Shown piece after piece: positions 28,643 to 35,742 of a stretch of DNA of 47,706 nt. The notes beneath the pieces are model-generated. The model was not told the origin of the DNA and searched no databases. It saw only the letters and a list, made by a program, of their open reading frames with translations. This DNA is from Gammaproteobacteria bacterium RIFCSPHIGHO2_12_FULL_63_22 (GTDB lineage Bacteria; Pseudomonadota; Gammaproteobacteria; Xanthomonadales; Xanthomonadaceae), in assembly GCA_001801685.1 (NCBI GenBank), contig MGYJ01000083.1:1-47706 (forward strand), read 5' to 3'. Made by a program: the position numbers and the translations under genes. How positions within the stretch are numbered: position 1 is the stretch's first letter; each line of letters starts with the position of its first letter.

Positions 28643-28690
28643 TTGACGTGACGCCCCGCTGTGTTTACTGTACTAACACACACAGTACAG
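28643..28690 (+). promoter_or_regulatory. GntR promoter with perfect inverted-repeat operator
   Basis: CTGTACT (28668-28674) and AGTACAG (28684-28690) form a perfect 7-base inverted repeat around a 9-base spacer, just before the GntR ATG at 28703. A -35-like TTGACG (28643-28648) with TACTGT (28666-28671) 17 bases later puts the -10 within the repeat. I infer autoregulation by the adjacent YtrA-type GntR protein. Confidence 0.6.
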
Positions 28691-28702
28691 GCAGGACAGC
28701 CA

Positions 28703-29113
28703 ATGGCTCGCACCCAGGCCCTGATGCTCCAGATCGCCACCGGCGACCCGCGCCCGATCAGCAAGCAGATCGTGGACGGCATCCGCATGAAGGTCGCCAC
28801 CGGCGAGCTCGCCCAGGGCGTGCAACTGCCCAGCGTGCGTGGCCTCGCCCAGCAGCTCGGCATCAACGCCAACACCGTGGCCAAGGCCTACGCGGAACTC
28901 ACCGCCGAGGGCTGGCTGGATTCGCGACAGGGGCTCGGCCTGTACGTGGCCGCGCCGCGCCAGCGACTGAGCACGCATGAACGTGAGAAGCGCATGGACG
29001 AGGCGGTGAACCGTTTCGTGCACGACGTGGTCGCGCTCGACTATCCCGCCGATGAAGTCATCGCACGACTCGATTTCGAACTGCAGGCGCTTGCGCCAAA
29101 AAAAACGGCCTGA
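28703..29113 (+). CDS. GntR family (YtrA subfamily) transcriptional regulator
   Basis: A 136-residue regulator of the short YtrA-type GntR subfamily. The winged helix-turn-helix occupies about residues 12-75 (ISKQIVDGIRMKVATGEL, LPSVRGLAQQLGINANTVAKAYAEL, EGWLDSRQGLGLYV). A short helical C-terminus (about 80-130) provides dimerisation instead of an effector domain. YtrA members usually control adjacent ABC transporter genes, and an ABC ATPase gene begins 27 bp after its stop. The start has an AGGAC Shine-Dalgarno sequence; the earlier in-frame ATG at 28661 would lie within the operator. I infer autoregulation of the whole five-gene unit. Confidence 0.88.
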   Translation: MARTQALMLQIATGDPRPISKQIVDGIRMKVATGELAQGVQLPSVRGLAQQLGINANTVAKAYAELTAEGWLDSRQGLGLYVAAPRQRLSTHEREKRMDEAVNRFVHDVVALDYPADEVIARLDFELQALAPKKTA

Positions 29114-29140
29114 GCCCACCCTCTCCCGAAGACCCGGACC

Positions 29141-30058
29141 ATGACTGACTACGTGATCGAAACCCGCGCGCTGACCAAGCGCTACGGCAAGAAGCTGGCG
29201 CTGAACCACCTGGACCTGCAGATTCCGCGCGGCCGCATCCACGCCATCGTCGGCGCCAATGGCGCGGGCAAGTCCACGCTGTTTCGCATCCTGCTCGGCT
29301 TCCTCGCGCCGACATCCGGTCAGTCCACCATCCTTGGTTGTGATTCGCAGTCGCTGACCCCGGCCTTGCGCAGCCGCATTGGATTCGTCAACGAAGAGCA
29401 CACGCTGCCAGGCTGGATGACCGTGGCTGCCGTGGTGGCGATGCAGCGTCGCCATTATCGGCAATGGAATGAAGACGTTCATCGCGACGTGCTGGGCAAC
29501 TACCACGTGCTGCCGGAACAGAAAGTCAGCCAACTTTCGCGCGGCGAGCGCGCCGGCCTGAATCTTTCCCTGGCGCTGGCGCAAGGCCCCGAGTTGCTGA
29601 TCCTCGACGAGCCTACGCTCGGGCTGGACGTGGTTGCAAAGCGCGCGTTTCTCGAATCGCTGCTCAATTCGAACGCCGCGGAATCGTGCTCGATTATCTA
29701 CTGCTCGCACCAGATGGAAGAGATAGAGCGCGTCGCCGACAACCTGATCATCCTCGAGCAGGGCTCGCTGGTGAACATGTCGCCACCGGATGAATTCTGC
29801 GAGCGCGTGCACTACTGGATCGCCGACATGCCCTTCAAGGGGCCGGACAAGTCGCTCGTGCCCGGGCTGCTGCAGGTACAGCGCATCGAGGGCCTGTTCC
29901 ACTATGTGGTGATAGACCAGGGCGAGGACTTCGCCGACTTCCTGCGCAGCCACGGTGCGCGCAGCGTGCAGGGCATGCCGGTCAGCCTTGACCGCGCGGT
30001 CAACGGCTTCCTGGCAAAGAACCACATCGGCCCCGAAGGGCATGAGCCACGGCCATGA
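29141..30058 (+). CDS. ABC transporter ATP-binding protein with unusual signature
   Basis: A 305-residue ABC ATPase. The Walker A GANGAGKST is at 38-46, Walker B LLILDEP at 152-158, and the switch His in YCSHQMEEIE is present. Two points deviate: the signature reads LSRGE (132-136) instead of LSGGQ, and the Q-loop position reads FVNEE, with Glu85 where Gln is usual. The C-terminal part, about 95 residues after the core, is a small extra domain as in many YtrB/NatA-type proteins. It overlaps the following membrane-protein gene by four bases (ATGA). I infer that it energises the two large membrane proteins encoded next. Confidence 0.9.
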   Translation: MTDYVIETRALTKRYGKKLALNHLDLQIPRGRIHAIVGANGAGKSTLFRILLGFLAPTSGQSTILGCDSQSLTPALRSRIGFVNEEHTLPGWMTVAAVVAMQRRHYRQWNEDVHRDVLGNYHVLPEQKVSQLSRGERAGLNLSLALAQGPELLILDEPTLGLDVVAKRAFLESLLNSNAAESCSIIYCSHQMEEIERVADNLIILEQGSLVNMSPPDEFCERVHYWIADMPFKGPDKSLVPGLLQVQRIEGLFHYVVIDQGEDFADFLRSHGARSVQGMPVSLDRAVNGFLAKNHIGPEGHEPRP

Positions 30059-31836
30059 TCGACCTGTTCAGGAGCGAACTGCTGCGCTTCCGTCACTGGG
30101 CCTTGGCCTACGCGCTCTTGCACCTGGGCATGCTGGGGTTCTTCGCGCGTGTCGTGGATCCCTTGCAGCAACCCGACGTCGTCTACCTGGTTGTCGCTGC
30201 GGTGTATGCACTGAGTGGACTGCTGTTGGCCCTCTACCAGATGGGCACCTATCGGCGCCCCAATACCTGGCTGAATCTCTTGCATCGTCCGCTGCCGCAT
30301 TGGCAAGTCGCCGTCGCGCTGTTGGTGGCTGCCGCCAGCCTGTTGCTGCTGGCCATCGTGGCGCCCTTGTTGTTGATGTTGGCCGGCCAGGCAACGTGGA
30401 CGGCGCGCGTGGTGGATTCGCGTCACTGGCTGCTGCCGCTCGCTGCCTTCCTCGTCACGTCGTGCAGTTATCTCGCCGGCGTTTTCGCGATGCTGGCACC
30501 CAGGCGCTATGCCGCCGCGGGCCTGTTCGGCCTTTTGCTGCTGACAGCAAGCCATGCCGTGGGCGCGTCGGCATTGCTGGTGCAACTAGCGCTGGTGCTG
30601 TGGTTGCTGGCCCTGGTGGCGACTGCTTTCCAGCCCGACCTGACGCGGCCGCCGGTGCGTTGGCCCGGCTTGATGGCGGTGGCGCTGACCGTGCAGATGG
30701 CGGTTTACGTACTGCTGGCCAGTGCCGGCCTTGGCTACCAGTTGTTGTGGATGCTGCAGGGCTCGCATCCGCTCAACAGCACGCCACCTGCCGGAGGCTA
30801 CATCGAGGCAAGCCGCGCTGATGGCGCCGACCTGATGGCTGCCGGACTGGTATCGAGCCGCGTTGCCGAAGCGCCGGTATGGCGCGAGCAGGTGCGTCTG
30901 GCGGAAGTGTTTACCTGGCAACGCCAGTTCGACGCACTGCCGATCCGCAACGAGCTGGGCAACATCGCGCCGATGGAGTTCGACGATGACGCACGCCGAC
31001 TGCGCTGGATATTCAGCCACGACACGATGCGTTTCACCGGCATGTCACTCGGAGACTCGCAGCCTGCCGGCCGCATGGGAATCGGCCCGGCGCAGGCGCC
31101 GTTTCCGAAGCCGCCGCTGCCGATCGGCGGCAAGTTCCTGGCCAGCGCCGATACCGTTTATGGCTATGACACGCAGCATCGCATGGTCTTGCCGCGCATC
31201 ATCCTGCCTGCGGGCGAAACCCTGGCGCTGGCACCGTCTGCCATGGGGGAAGTCGTCCTGGTGATGAGCAATCGCGCTTTGTATGGCTACGACGCGCGCG
31301 CCTTCACCGACGGTGATTCCGTGCTCGCGCCGCGCTTGCGCATTGCCTTACCTGCGCCGATCGGCGATATCGACCGCGTCGACATGATCGAACTGATCGA
31401 CGGCTACCTGGTTTCGTTCGTGACGGGCCTGGGCAGCACCGATGGGCCAGGTTCGCCCCTGCAGGCCATGGTGCATGTGTCGGGTGAGGGCAAGGCAACC
31501 CGGGTCGGCCAGCGTGCGCTGCAGCCGGATTTTCCACTGGCACTGCGCCACTACCCCTGGTGGGTTTCACCGGTGATGCATGACTTGCGCAAGTTGGCGA
31601 TCAATGCGCTGGCCGCGCCCATGCCGCTGAAAGCCCAGGCTCCGCAGCCGATTCCGACGAGCATGAAATGGCTGGCCGCAGCCCTGCTGATGGCGTCGCT
31701 ATTGGCCAGCGCGTACTGGTCGCGTCGCCAGGGACTGCCGAGGGCCAGGCGCGTGGCCTGGGCCTTGGCGTGCGCCGGCATCGGCGTGCCTGCGCTGCTT
31801 GCGCAAGGCTTGATCCATCCCGACAGCGAGGGCTGA
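30055..31836 (+). CDS. Large membrane protein, ABC permease-like with big extracytoplasmic domain (paralogue 1)
   Basis: A 593-residue protein without a family that I recognise. About seven hydrophobic segments occur in residues 14-230 (for example 14-33, 41-62, 84-110, 123-147, 150-172, 173-191, 205-230), followed by a long predicted extracytoplasmic region (231-535), then two more membrane helices (537-553, 565-586). The soluble region has propeller-like repeats TVYGYD and ALYGYDARAF. Its sequence parallels the 608-residue protein at 33916-35742: of the first 80 aligned residues, 56 are identical by my count, including LYQMG.YRRP.TWLNLLHRPL. It follows the ABC ATPase with a four-base overlap, so I infer a permease partner. 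Confidence 0.8.
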   Translation: MIDLFRSELLRFRHWALAYALLHLGMLGFFARVVDPLQQPDVVYLVVAAVYALSGLLLALYQMGTYRRPNTWLNLLHRPLPHWQVAVALLVAAASLLLLAIVAPLLLMLAGQATWTARVVDSRHWLLPLAAFLVTSCSYLAGVFAMLAPRRYAAAGLFGLLLLTASHAVGASALLVQLALVLWLLALVATAFQPDLTRPPVRWPGLMAVALTVQMAVYVLLASAGLGYQLLWMLQGSHPLNSTPPAGGYIEASRADGADLMAAGLVSSRVAEAPVWREQVRLAEVFTWQRQFDALPIRNELGNIAPMEFDDDARRLRWIFSHDTMRFTGMSLGDSQPAGRMGIGPAQAPFPKPPLPIGGKFLASADTVYGYDTQHRMVLPRIILPAGETLALAPSAMGEVVLVMSNRALYGYDARAFTDGDSVLAPRLRIALPAPIGDIDRVDMIELIDGYLVSFVTGLGSTDGPGSPLQAMVHVSGEGKATRVGQRALQPDFPLALRHYPWWVSPVMHDLRKLAINALAAPMPLKAQAPQPIPTSMKWLAAALLMASLLASAYWSRRQGLPRARRVAWALACAGIGVPALLAQGLIHPDSEG

Positions 31837-31840
31837 TTCC

Positions 31841-33895
31841 ATGCTTTTCCTTCTCTCTCGCGTCCACCTTGCCTGGATGGCCTCATTGCTGGTCCTGTGC
31901 GCAGGCCCGGTGCAAGCCGGTGATTTTCGCGATTTGCGCAGCGCTCTTGAGCATGAGCGCAAGCGCGCACCGGCACCGCGCCTCGAGCGTGCCGACTTCC
32001 TGGCCAAGCCGGCCATCGCCGGTGCGCGCCTGTCGCCGCAGGGCCGTCATGTCGCCGTGCTGCGCGAGGGCGAGCGTGGCCGTAGCGTCTGGTTGCTCGA
32101 TACAAAAAGCCTGCAATTGACTCGACTGGTGGCGATGACCGATGCCACGGACCTGTCGTGGTCGCGGGATGGCAAGTGGCTCTTCCTCGAAAGCACGCGC
32201 CAGCTGAGCAAGGTGTCCGTTACCGGCGCGCTTGGTTCAGGCGTGATGCTGCGACTCGACGATGCACGCAAGCTCGAAGTGGCCGGTATCGATCCCACGC
32301 AGCCGGCCGCAGTGCTGTTGTTCGAACAGGAGACGCGGCCCGGGGAGACACTGCCCTCGAAGTACCGCTTATTGCGGCTGGATGTGTCGGGTCGCCGCAC
32401 CGTGCTGCACGAAGACTCGCGCGCGCTGCTCGATTTCGCATTGGCGCCCGACGGTCGCCTGGCCTTCCTCAAGCGCGTCGACGGCAAGTCCGTAAGCATC
32501 GTGGGCCGCGCGCCCGGCCAGCGCTGGCGCGAACTGGTGCGTAGCCACGCGATGGAACGCGCATCCTTGATCGCCACCAGCGACGGTGGTCGCAGCCTGC
32601 TGTTGGCCGGCGACATCGCCAGCGACCGGCGCGCCCTGCTGCGAGTCGACCTGCAAGGCAAGGTCCACAGGCTGCATGAAGACCCCGAGGCCATTGCCGA
32701 TCTTGCCGACGTTGTCATCGATCCAGAAACGCAGCAGCCCCTGCTGGCCAGCTATCGCAGTCTCCGGCCTTCCACCCACGGCCTCACGCCCGCCATCGCC
32801 GCGCGCATGTCCAAGCTGCAAGCGCGGTTTCCCGACCGCATGTTGGACATCTCGATCGCGGCTGGCGTCGATGCGCCCTGGCTGCTGCACGAGCGGGGCG
32901 ATGTCTTGCAACGAGGCCGCTGGTTCTTGTTCAACCCGCGATCCGGCGAATTTCGCATCATCCTGGACAAGATCGAAGACCCATCGAAATCGCTTCCCGC
33001 AGCGGCGCTGGCCCGGCGCATCGCCTTTTCCTGGCGGGCCTCGGATGGCATGCAACTGCATGGGTTCCTCTCGGTTCCACCCGGCATCGATCCCCGCCGG
33101 CTGCCACTGCTGGCGTCCGTGCATGGCGGCCCTTGGGCGCAAGCCAGGCCGGGATTTTCCACCACGACGCAATTCCTGGCCAATCGCGGCTATGTCGTGT
33201 TCGAACCGAACTTTCGCGGCTCCACCGGTTTCGGCCGCAGCTATCTGTTCGCCGCCAAGGGAGATTTCGGAAACGGTCGCGTGCAGCGCGACATCGAGGA
33301 GGGCGTGCGGCAGTTGCTGGCGCAGGGCATTGGCGATCCCAAGCGGGTTGGCATCACAGGCGTTTCCTTTGGCGGCTACGCGACCTTGCTCGGCATCACT
33401 TTCTCGCCGGACTTGTTCCGTGTCGGCGTGGCGGTGGTTCCGCCTTCGGACTTCGGCTGGACCTTGCGCTGGGCAACGACCAATAGCGACATCAGCCTGA
33501 ACGCGGCAATTCCGCTCATCGATACCCTCAAGCTGTTGTCGCTCGACATCAGCGACCCGACGGTGCTGCAGAGGCTCCGTACGCAGTCACCCCTGGCCAA
33601 CGCCGCGCGGCTGCAGCGGCCCCTGCTGATGATGGCGGGCGGCCGCGACCAGCGCGTCGCCATCCGTGGCGTGGTCCACTACGCGGCTACCTTGCGCGCG
33701 CTGGACAAGGACCTGGGCTTGTACATCGACCCCAAGGCGGGCCATGCGCTTGACGAGCCGGGCAGCCGCGAAGCCTACCTGTACCTGATGGAAGACCAGT
33801 TCCATCGCCACCTGCGCGGCGCGCGACCGACGCCGCCGAATGCCGAGCTTCGCGAACAACTGCGTCGCAACCTGCGCCTCGACGCGCGCCACTGA
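31841..33895 (+). CDS. Secreted S9 family prolyl oligopeptidase-like peptidase
   Basis: A 684-residue serine peptidase of family S9 (acylaminoacyl-peptidase/prolyl oligopeptidase type). A signal peptide covers about residues 1-26 (ending VQA), so it is expected in the periplasm or outside. Residues 50-380 form the N-terminal propeller-like domain; the alpha/beta hydrolase domain follows. The catalytic triad is Ser509 in GVSFGGYA, Asp603 in AGGRDQRV and His635 in KAGHAL; the HGGPWAQ oxyanion segment is at 428-434. All three residues are present, so an active enzyme is predicted. It sits only 4 bp after paralogue 1 and 20 bp before paralogue 2. Substrate processing linked to transport is an inference from this position. 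Confidence 0.92.
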   Translation: MLFLLSRVHLAWMASLLVLCAGPVQAGDFRDLRSALEHERKRAPAPRLERADFLAKPAIAGARLSPQGRHVAVLREGERGRSVWLLDTKSLQLTRLVAMTDATDLSWSRDGKWLFLESTRQLSKVSVTGALGSGVMLRLDDARKLEVAGIDPTQPAAVLLFEQETRPGETLPSKYRLLRLDVSGRRTVLHEDSRALLDFALAPDGRLAFLKRVDGKSVSIVGRAPGQRWRELVRSHAMERASLIATSDGGRSLLLAGDIASDRRALLRVDLQGKVHRLHEDPEAIADLADVVIDPETQQPLLASYRSLRPSTHGLTPAIAARMSKLQARFPDRMLDISIAAGVDAPWLLHERGDVLQRGRWFLFNPRSGEFRIILDKIEDPSKSLPAAALARRIAFSWRASDGMQLHGFLSVPPGIDPRRLPLLASVHGGPWAQARPGFSTTTQFLANRGYVVFEPNFRGSTGFGRSYLFAAKGDFGNGRVQRDIEEGVRQLLAQGIGDPKRVGITGVSFGGYATLLGITFSPDLFRVGVAVVPPSDFGWTLRWATTNSDISLNAAIPLIDTLKLLSLDISDPTVLQRLRTQSPLANAARLQRPLLMMAGGRDQRVAIRGVVHYAATLRALDKDLGLYIDPKAGHALDEPGSREAYLYLMEDQFHRHLRGARPTPPNAELREQLRRNLRLDARH

Positions 33896-33915
33896 CTTCA
33901 CCCCAGGACTAACGC

Positions 33916-35742
33916 ATGCGGGATTTCTTCCGGGCCGAGATGCTGCGCTTTCGCAGCTGGACGATTGCCTACGCGCTCATCCACTTGTTCGCCCTGGTGC
34001 TCATGGCGCGGGTGGTGGACCCGGCGCAGCAACCCGATCGCATCTACCAGTTGGTCGGACTGGTCTACGCCATCAGTGGGCTGTTGCTCGGGCTGTACCA
34101 GATGGGCGGCTATCGTCGACCCGGTACTTGGCTGAACCTGTTGCATCGCCCGCTGTCGGCGACGCGTATTGCACTCGCGCTTTTGGCTGCCGGCGCGGCC
34201 TTGCTGGCCATTGCCGTGCTGCTGCCCTTGCTGGCCATCGCGGGCTGGCAGGAGACGATGACGGCGCGCGTGCTCGATACGCGCCACCTGTTCCTGTGCC
34301 TGTCCGCGTTGCTGGTGACGCTGTGCGCGTACCTGGTGGGTTGTTACGCCATGCTCGCCAACAAGCGTTACGCCTTCAGCGGCTTCATCTTCCTGATTGG
34401 CCTGGCCCTCGCAGATGCGGTAGGCATGGGCGCGATCGCCTTGCAGTGCCTGGCGCTCGCCTGGCTGTTGGCCATGGTCTTGTTCGCTTTCAAGCCTGAC
34501 CTGTCCGGTTTGCCGGGGAGCCGATCCGCGCCCGGTACGGCCTTCGCAGGCGTTATTGCCACGGCCTTGCCCTTGCAGATGACGATGTGGTTCGTGCTGC
34601 TGCTCGCTGGCGTGGTCGTTGAGACCGCGTGGATCGCCAGCGGCTCGCATCCCAACAACCTGGCCGTCAATCCGCCCGACAGCGTCAAGGCCGCGAACTA
34701 CGCCGATGCAAAAACCTTGATGGTGATGGGCTTGCAAGCCAGCACTGCGGCCGAGGCCGCGGATTGGCGCGAACAGGCAGGCGTCGCCGAAGTGTTCGAC
34801 ATCGGCCCCAATGCCGCCGAGCTTCCGGTTCGCAATTCCCTGATGAATGTCGCGCCGATCGGATTGCACGATGAACAGCGGCGCATCCGTTGGGAGTTCA
34901 GCCACGACAGCCTGAAGTTTGAAGGCATGCGTGTTGCCGATTCCGGGGCGGCCGGCAGCCTGGGCATCGAGGGTAATGGCGCTTTTCCAGCGCCACCGCT
35001 GCCGGGCCCGGAAGGCATGCTGCTCACCGCGCACACGATCTACCAATACGACCGGCTGGCGAACGTGATCCTGCCTCGCATAAAGGCGCCGGCCGGTGAA
35101 ACGATCACCGGCGGCGACCGCATTGGCGATCGTGTTGCCGTGCTCACTGACCGAGCCTTGTATTTCTTCGACGCACGCGACTTCCGCAATAACACCGGTT
35201 TGGTGTCGCCACGCCAACGCATGCCTCTGCCCGGCAAGACCGGCAACCTGACGCGCATCGTGTTGATGCCGCTTGTCGACGGCAGCTTGGTCAGCTTCCT
35301 TTTCTCGGCCCACCAGCACAATGCCGAGGGCGCACCGGCCTACCAGCTGACCCAGCGCATCGACGAAGGCGGGCGCATCCAGGACATTGCGCGACGGACG
35401 CCCCAGGTTCCTTACGGACCGAGTTGGCGTTACCAGAACTGGTATCCCTCGCCGCTGCTATACGGCGCCAAGAATGCGGTGCTCGACGTATTCTCCGGCT
35501 ACGTGCCGATCCAGGACGACAAGAACCTGGCGCCGGTACCACGCAGCATGAAGCTGCTTGCGGCTGGGCTTATGGGCCTGTCCTTGCTGGCGGCGATCTG
35601 GCGTACCCGACGCGCCGTGCTTTCGCGCAGCGCCCGCGTCGCGTGGTTGCTGGCCTGCGCGCTACTCAGTGTTCCTGCCCTGATGAGTCTGTGGCTGATG
35701 GTTCCGTTGCGTGAGCGCGAACCAACGCCGACCCAGGCTTGA
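33916..35742 (+). CDS. Large membrane protein, ABC permease-like (paralogue 2)
   Basis: A 608-residue protein closely related in layout and sequence to the product of 30055-31836. It has about seven N-terminal membrane segments (through about residue 236), a long extracytoplasmic region (about 237-543) and two C-terminal helices (544-562, 574-596). Shared landmarks are ARVVDP.QQPD, LYQMGGYRRP.TWLNLLHRPL, GSHP.N, the RIRWEFSHDSLKFEGM block (323-338) and LPRI...PAGET. I infer a gene duplication and a heterodimeric partner of paralogue 1 with the shared ATPase. The start has an AGGA sequence ahead of it. It ends 1 bp from the convergent ABC exporter gene. Confidence 0.8.
   Translation: MRDFFRAEMLRFRSWTIAYALIHLFALVLMARVVDPAQQPDRIYQLVGLVYAISGLLLGLYQMGGYRRPGTWLNLLHRPLSATRIALALLAAGAALLAIAVLLPLLAIAGWQETMTARVLDTRHLFLCLSALLVTLCAYLVGCYAMLANKRYAFSGFIFLIGLALADAVGMGAIALQCLALAWLLAMVLFAFKPDLSGLPGSRSAPGTAFAGVIATALPLQMTMWFVLLLAGVVVETAWIASGSHPNNLAVNPPDSVKAANYADAKTLMVMGLQASTAAEAADWREQAGVAEVFDIGPNAAELPVRNSLMNVAPIGLHDEQRRIRWEFSHDSLKFEGMRVADSGAAGSLGIEGNGAFPAPPLPGPEGMLLTAHTIYQYDRLANVILPRIKAPAGETITGGDRIGDRVAVLTDRALYFFDARDFRNNTGLVSPRQRMPLPGKTGNLTRIVLMPLVDGSLVSFLFSAHQHNAEGAPAYQLTQRIDEGGRIQDIARRTPQVPYGPSWRYQNWYPSPLLYGAKNAVLDVFSGYVPIQDDKNLAPVPRSMKLLAAGLMGLSLLAAIWRTRRAVLSRSARVAWLLACALLSVPALMSLWLMVPLREREPTPTQA

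What the first reader, a model, noticed from the sequence alone, without database searches (positions are those of the whole stretch)
28643..35742. GntR-ABC ATPase-membrane protein-S9 peptidase-membrane protein cassette with duplicated permease-like genes
Seen: five co-directional genes with short or overlapping junctions, a single ABC ATPase, and two large membrane proteins (593 and 608 aa) of the same layout that share 56 of their first 80 residues by my count, flanking a secreted S9 peptidase with an intact Ser-Asp-His triad. Known: YtrA-type GntR regulators usually control adjacent ABC genes; S9 enzymes cleave oligopeptides. Inferred: the two membrane proteins, each with a ~300-residue extracytoplasmic domain, form a heterodimeric ABC assembly coupled to a periplasmic peptidase. 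This could be a peptide sensing, uptake, detoxification or maturation system; I know of no described system with this composition.
Basis: partly seen in the sequence, partly recalled or inferred. Interest (0 to 1): 0.8.

Follow-up and report, generated by a model that had tools for sequence, protein, structure and literature searches.

The report
Conserved peptidase-coupled ABC transporter operon
A four-gene, probably self-regulated bacterial module that pairs an ATP-driven membrane protein of a kind not found in the family libraries searched with a secreted peptide-cutting enzyme is kept together across many relatives, and this genome carries an unusual version with two different membrane proteins.

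Summary
In detail: five intact co-directional genes lie at 28703-35742. The core unit is four genes, GntR-ABC-MP-S9. It recurs in 75 other operons, mostly of the same order, with one in another family of the class and one in another class; S9 is present in 71 of the 74 that can be judged. The MP family has no credible Pfam, NCBIfam or PDB sequence match: about nine predicted helices and a ~300-residue outer domain. All 74 upstream regions examined carry TGTACT-N9-AGTACA at 10 or more of 12 positions, usually at -10 spacing; exact sites elsewhere are rare. This suggests a dedicated autorepressor. One relative has MP and S9 in a single reading frame. The 'duplicated' MPs are not sisters (p-AU 0.00017). 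Two-MP versions also occur in two other families. Best reading, modest confidence: an ABC-2-like exporter or extractor hands a peptide to a dedicated periplasmic S9 peptidase; closest regulatory analogue PmtR/Pmt.

The parts
28643..28648 (+). -35-like hexamer TTGACG of the operon promoter (candidate)
   Evidence: TTGA[CT] lies within 32 nt upstream of the palindrome in 70 of 74 regions, at a 16-18 nt spacer in 50 of 74. In the window the spacer to TGTACT is 20 nt and to TACTGT (28666-28671) 17 nt (read). The generic promoter scan found no site here.
28668..28690 (+). operator-like palindrome CTGTACT-N9-AGTACAG overlapping the -10 position
   Evidence: the only exact site in this 4.26 Mb genome; 55 of 69 genomes have one.: 63 of 74 upstream regions match 12 of 12 core positions, 6 match 11 and 5 match 10.
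28703..29113 (+). GntR-family, YtrA-like regulator, 136 aa
   Evidence: PF00392 E 2.5e-16; relative present in 74 of 75 other operons, the remaining one being cut by its contig end
29141..30058 (+). ABC ATPase, 305 aa
   Evidence: PF00005 E 2.4e-26; Walker A, LSRGE signature, Walker B, D- and H-loop kept in 52 of 52 aligned; best PDB sequences ABCA3/ABCA1
30055..31836 (+). MP1, membrane protein 593 aa, unnamed family; placed beside locus L107 of another family
   Evidence: no family match; tree and test; departs from 2 of 72 conserved columns
31841..33895 (+). S9 peptidase with signal-like N-terminus, 684 aa
   Evidence: PF00326 E 3.2e-34; S509/D603/H635 invariant in 23 of 23; signal-like N-terminus in 45 of 48 relatives by a crude rule
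33916..35742 (+). MP2, membrane protein 608 aa, same family, in the branch that holds 3 of the 4 other Arenimonas loci and Lysobacter
   Evidence: departs from 4 of 72 conserved columns; about 9 helices plus outer domain 238-545
34630..35538 (+). extracytoplasmic domain of MP2 (residues 239-541), possibly a beta-propeller

Best explanation
A self-contained transport-and-cleavage module. Shown by sequence: a YtrA-like regulator gene; a conserved palindrome at the -10 position before it, almost unique in each genome; one ABC ATPase; one membrane protein (MP) with about nine predicted helices, a conserved loop between helices 2 and 3 and a large outer domain; and one S9 peptidase with a signal-like N-terminus. 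Inferred: GntR represses its own operon through the palindrome. Inferred: the ATPase works as a homodimer on an MP dimer (homodimer in most species; MP1-MP2 heterodimer or two alternative homodimers here). Inferred: it moves or extracts a peptide from the cell or inner membrane to the periplasmic face, where the MP outer domain passes it to the dedicated S9 peptidase, which cuts it. Inferred: the substrate, or the damage it causes, lifts repression, as phenol-soluble modulins do for PmtR. In the window the operon looks like a mosaic in which two MPs from different branches share one ATPase and one peptidase.
For: Gene order: GntR-ABC-MP-S9 in 75 other operons; S9 present in 71 of 74 judgeable. 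Compactness: 148 junctions in 50 family loci run from -4 to 231 nt, which leaves no room for a further sizeable gene. MP-S9 overlaps of 4 nt in L027, L032, L041, L046, L049, L050 and L052 and of 1 nt in L053. Fusion: L051 has MP and S9 in one 1250-aa open frame, on the side predicted periplasmic by charge. Co-variation: MP-S9 distance correlation 0.957, partial 0.80 given ABC and GntR; MP-ABC partial 0.04 given S9 and GntR (47 loci). Regulation. Exporter-class ATPase: best PDB sequences are ABCA proteins; NCBIfam DrrA and PmtA lead, below cut-offs. PmtR analogy: passages of PMC5080381.
Against: Three operons lack S9 (L071, L123, L125; no S9 of this type elsewhere in the genomes of the last two), so MP can be kept without it. 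ABC-2 homology of MP is not demonstrated (hhalign 10% probability). The partial correlations are confounded by the faster evolution and greater length of MP and S9; with only GntR held, ABC-MP partials are 0.53-0.55. The L051 fusion is a single case from an 89%-complete assembly, and a signal-peptide-like stretch remains at the joint. PmtR is only ninth among NCBIfam matches of the GntR protein (44.8 against 200 bits), behind MocR-type and other regulators. No substrate, direction of transport, DNA binding or enzyme activity is known.
Confidence: 0.42

Rival explanations
1. Mechanotransmission: the ATPase and MP do not move a substrate but, like FtsEX (recalled), use ATP to switch the outer domain, which activates or positions the S9 peptidase in the periplasm.
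For: MP-S9 linkage (order; one fused frame; co-variation), large outer domain, junctions too short for a further sizeable gene in 50 family loci.
Against: Three operons keep MP without S9. No FtsX or MacB family match for MP at E up to 1. S9 enzymes are generally active alone (recalled).
Confidence: 0.22
2. Envelope or antibiotic stress module of the Ytr type: the system responds to disturbed cell-wall precursors, and the peptidase is an accessory.
For: YtrA-like regulator next to ABC genes; B. subtilis ytrGABCDEF is induced by lipid II cycle inhibitors and stimulates wall synthesis (abstract of PMC12772383).
Against: The Ytr operon as described in that abstract holds an ABC transporter, YtrA and YtrG, with no S9 peptidase named; a role in antibiotic survival was not confirmed there. 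S9 enzymes cut oligopeptides, not known for peptidoglycan (recalled).
Confidence: 0.18
3. Peptide uptake: the S9 peptidase trims external peptides and the ABC system imports the products.
For: Predicted periplasmic peptidase plus ABC genes.
Against: The junctions of 50 family loci leave no room for a binding-protein gene; binding proteins elsewhere in the genomes were not searched for. ATPase closest to exporter-class ABCA/DrrA/PmtA.
Confidence: 0.08
4. Loose neighbours without joint function.
For: Patchy presence: 51 of 247 family genomes; 5 of the 13 own-genus genomes listed.
Against: Same order across families and one other class, overlaps, one fusion, a nearly single palindrome. The two own-genus genomes without MP that were tested (G076, G147) also lack this S9 type, best about 200 bits against about 1000.
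Confidence: 0.03

Closest known systems
PmtR-PmtABCD of Staphylococcus aureus (passages of PMC5080381)
   Same: YtrA-type GntR repressor heading an ABC operon, binding site at the promoter, regulon limited to its own operon plus one read-through gene; ATPase similar to PmtA (below cut-off)
   Different: Pmt has several ATPase and membrane genes and no S9 peptidase (recalled in part); PmtR is only ninth among matches of the GntR protein; the MP family here has no NCBIfam match; inducer here unknown
ytrGABCDEF of Bacillus subtilis (abstract of PMC12772383)
   Same: YtrA-type repressor encoded with an ABC transporter
   Different: Different gene set, no S9 peptidase named in the abstract
Atxe2-family lasso peptide isopeptidase (NF033523)
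   Same: Top NCBIfam match of the window S9 (E 2.8e-19) and a match in 21 of 23 relatives
   Different: 69 bits against a cut-off of 400, best stretch mainly the catalytic half; dipeptidyl-peptidase Dpp5 also matches 23 of 23, likewise below its cut-off in the window protein; linkage to lasso genes not tested
ABC2_membrane_4 permeases (PF12730)
   Same: Best hhalign stretch is the loop between helices 2 and 3, W-x-x-LL-x-x-P, at the place of the ABC-2 coupling helix (the placing is recalled)
   Different: Probability only 10%; MP adds about three helices and a ~300-residue outer domain
Peptidase-containing ABC transporters with C39 domain (recalled)
   Same: Transport combined with peptide cleavage
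   Different: C39 cysteine peptidase on the cytoplasmic side of the same chain; here a serine peptidase predicted outside

Membership tests
YtrA subfamily of GntR regulators | Very small protein: N-terminal HTH plus one short C-terminal helical region | tested here: met
   136 aa, PF00392 at residues 20-82; definition from a passage of PMC5080381. The C-terminal helix was not modelled.
YtrA subfamily of GntR regulators | Represses an adjacent ABC operon through an operator at its promoter | tested here: inconclusive
   Placement and palindrome met; repression not measured
ABC transporter ATPase | Walker A, signature, Walker B, D-loop, H-loop | tested here: met
   Kept in 52 of 52 aligned
ABC-2 type permease | Recognisable by a curated ABC-2 profile | tested here: not met
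   No ABC2_membrane match in any of 27 members at E up to 1
ABC-2 type permease | Fold with coupling helix between helices 2 and 3 | tested here: inconclusive
   Right place and motif, hhalign 10%; AF2 pLDDT 52.8
Peptidase family S9 | PF00326 domain and Ser-Asp-His triad | tested here: met
   118.7 bits against 22.6; PF00326 in 23 of 23; S509, D603, H635 invariant in 23 of 23
Peptidase family S9 | N-terminal beta-propeller | tested here: inconclusive
   Only 3 of 23 members match PD40; not modelled
Lasso peptide isopeptidase NF033523 | Score above curated cut-off 400 | tested here: not met
   69.3 bits
Lasso peptide isopeptidase NF033523 | Linked to lasso peptide genes | not tested
   No lasso-specific search was run
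Pmt exporter | PmtR and PmtA equivalog scores | tested here: not met
   PmtR 44.8 against 200 bits, PmtA 135.3 against 350

The most novel reading that the evidence does not exclude
An ATP-switched periplasmic peptidase: the ABC ATPase and the new membrane-protein family form a mechanotransmitter whose outer domain docks and gates a dedicated S9 serine peptidase, a peptidase counterpart of FtsEX. Here one peptidase would be served by two non-identical membrane subunits.
Probability: 0.2. Interest if true: 0.75.

Novelty: new variant of a known kind. Interest (0 to 1): 0.5.

Why it matters
It defines a compact, recurrent operon whose central membrane protein is unrecognised by the Pfam, NCBIfam and PDB sequence searches, and ties it to a dedicated S9 peptidase predicted to be exported and to a candidate one-site repressor. 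If the coupling is real, it is a route by which ATP in the cytoplasm drives or feeds proteolysis in the periplasm. The nearly single palindrome makes it practical to look for the inducer and hence the substrate. The paper searches run here listed no description of this operon by title or abstract, but they were keyword searches of open papers only.

Tried and rejected

Dropped rows: L048 (MP frame-broken) was in the alignment but left out of A2 and the MP tree; L051 cut at residue 610 for MP alignments; L029, L048, L051 and L071 not in the distance correlations (47 of 51 family loci used). A2 used both window MPs and 25 of 51 others then held; A3 the window S9 and 22 of 49 others. G007 (weak fragment) was not fetched; G369 (L128) held no operon gene. 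L167 was not in the upstream-region counts.

Full report
1. What is in the window. Five intact co-directional genes occupy 28703-35742: GntR (136 aa), ABC ATPase (305), MP1 (593), S9 peptidase (684) and MP2 (608). A search of the own genome with MP2 finds only these two copies.

2. What the parts are. GntR has PF00392 as its only Pfam match above cut-off; the ATPase is led by PF00005; S9 has PF00326 with 118.7 bits. MP1 and MP2 have no match above cut-off in Pfam or NCBIfam. None of 27 family members matches an ABC-2 permease model at E up to 1, and a profile of the 27 finds nothing credible in the PDB sequences (best E 0.8). Averaged hydropathy and a low-confidence AF2 model suggest about nine helices: TM1-6, TM7, an outer domain of about 238-545, then TM8-9. 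The loop between helices 8 and 9 is rich in Lys/Arg, which would put the outer domain and the C-terminus outside. A highly conserved loop, YRRPnxWLxLLHRPL, lies between helices 2 and 3, where ABC-2 permeases have the coupling helix (recalled). hhalign against ORFs from PF12730 loci aligns exactly this stretch, but with only 10% probability. The outer domain modelled alone reaches pLDDT 60.0; many of its PDB matches are beta-propellers, at weak scores.

3. Conservation. MP2 finds a match in 51 of 247 family genomes, the own genome and one weak fragment (G007) included, in 16 of 54 genera; of the own-genus genomes listed, 5 of 13 match. The 27-member profile finds 35 of 299 genomes of the order, one of them a weak match without operon genes; 2 of 369 of the class (the own genome and G651); and 4 of 398 of the phylum (the own genome, one of the family, one of the order, and G1117 of another class). 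These samples overlap. Neighbourhoods were read for 51 loci, 25 loci of which 24 held operon genes, and G1117. L112 and L113 are two halves of one operon, so there are 75 operons besides the window. GntR and ABC precede MP in 74 of 75; the exception, L108, is cut by its contig end. S9 follows in 71 of 74 that can be judged. It is absent in L071, L123 and L125 (downstream ORFs of the last two listed). G448 and G456 have no S9 of this type elsewhere; G091 has one, with its other operon copy. L029 ends at the contig edge; the S9 of that genome lies at the very end of another contig (L168). Flank clustering showed no other gene in more than 7 of 76 loci; the three larger clusters have representatives that overlap the operon, but this test is weak.

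4. Signs of coupling. Overlaps at MP-S9 occur in 8 family loci, 4 nt in seven and 1 nt in L053. In L051 the MP and S9 reading frames are one 1250-aa ORF. A signal-peptide-like stretch remains at the joint, so the product may still be cut in two, and a lost stop in a draft assembly cannot be excluded. Pairwise distances of MP and S9 correlate at 0.957 (partial 0.80 given ABC and GntR; 0 of 500 label shuffles reach it), while MP-ABC falls to 0.04 given S9 and GntR (47 loci). Domain-wise, MP outer domain versus S9 catalytic domain (partial 0.744) is as high as the two halves of S9 with each other (0.740). MP and S9 evolve faster and are longer than the two control proteins, so part of this is a better-measured shared history, and the shuffles do not correct for shared descent.

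5. Regulation. A palindrome CTGTACT-N9-AGTACAG lies at 28668-28690, just before the GntR start. In 74 upstream regions (window included) the core TGTACT-N9-AGTACA scores 12 of 12 in 63, 11 in 6 and 10 in 5. Of 1460 random 150-nt windows of the same loci, 1397 score 6-8; 12 score 12, presumably because they hold the palindrome itself. TTGA[CT] stands within 32 nt upstream in 70 of 74, and at 16-18 nt in 50 of 74. A scan of 69 operon-bearing genomes finds the exact 14-base palindrome in 55. In 53 of them it stands before the operon; in G310 it is on an unread contig with an MP fragment; in G444 it is elsewhere; G082 and G452 have one extra site each. The reversed control pattern is found in 2 of 69. 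This fits a repressor dedicated to its own operon, as shown experimentally for PmtR, whose microarray changes were limited to pmt and one read-through gene (passages of PMC5080381). Repression itself was not tested.

6. The two membrane genes. In the MP tree (79 sequences, quick method) MP2 falls in a 22-row clade (SH-aLRT 100) with Lysobacter and three of the four other Arenimonas loci, and MP1 pairs with L107 of another family (98). Holding MP1 and MP2 together is rejected (p-AU 0.00017). The window ATPase is closest to A. oryziterrae (84%), the 23-bp palindrome is identical to that of G196, and the convergent ABC exporter downstream is shared (81%). So the locus looks native and one MP is extra. 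S9 also sits outside the Lysobacter-type clade, which would suit MP1 and S9 having come in together, but this is not significant (p-AU 0.109). Both MPs look constrained: they depart from 2 (MP1) and 4 (MP2) of 72 conserved columns. Families f7 and f8 have GntR-ABC-MP-MP-S9 (L110, L115, L118, and L112/L113 split). In f8 the two MPs form two orthologous series, while in f7 they are each other's sisters. On this tree a second MP has thus been added at least three times, which favours, without proving, a working two-subunit state.

7. Mechanism. The likeliest reading is an exporter or extractor with a periplasmic peptidase at its mouth, induced by its peptide substrate. Shown: composition, order, palindrome, catalytic residues; predicted: topology and export of S9. 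Inferred: repression, direction, substrate, dimer state, docking of S9 to the MP outer domain, induction. The nearest rival is ATP-driven gating of the peptidase without transport. Import is unlikely, since the operon has no room for a binding-protein gene (none was searched for elsewhere) and the ATPase resembles exporter-class proteins.

8. Novelty. The components' general kinds are known (YtrA-like regulator, ABC ATPase, S9 peptidase), while the MP family and the fixed four-gene combination were not found in the libraries and paper searches used. Of the papers, passages of PMC5080381 and the abstract of PMC12772383 were read; the others were seen only as search listings.

Noticed in passing
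L051:7295-11044: MP and S9 form one 1250-aa open frame with a signal-peptide-like stretch at the joint; a possible natural fusion in G126.
   Followed up: partly
L071, L123, L125: GntR-ABC-MP operons without the S9 gene; L123 and L125 are sister, long-branch lineages, L071 is a second copy in G091.
   Followed up: partly
L048 (G065): MP reading frame broken near residue 91 while the rest of the operon matches: pseudogene or assembly error.
   Followed up: no
window:35744-37693: Convergent ABC exporter directly after MP2, also next to the operon in L004 (81%) and L072 (75%).
   Followed up: partly
L110, L115, L118: Tandem MP pairs before S9 in families f7 and f8; in f8 the two copies form two orthologous series.
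   Followed up: yes
G082:C1:111593, G444:C1:17209, G452:C48:104615: Exact operator-like palindromes away from the operon; the last two share the same spacer.
   Followed up: no
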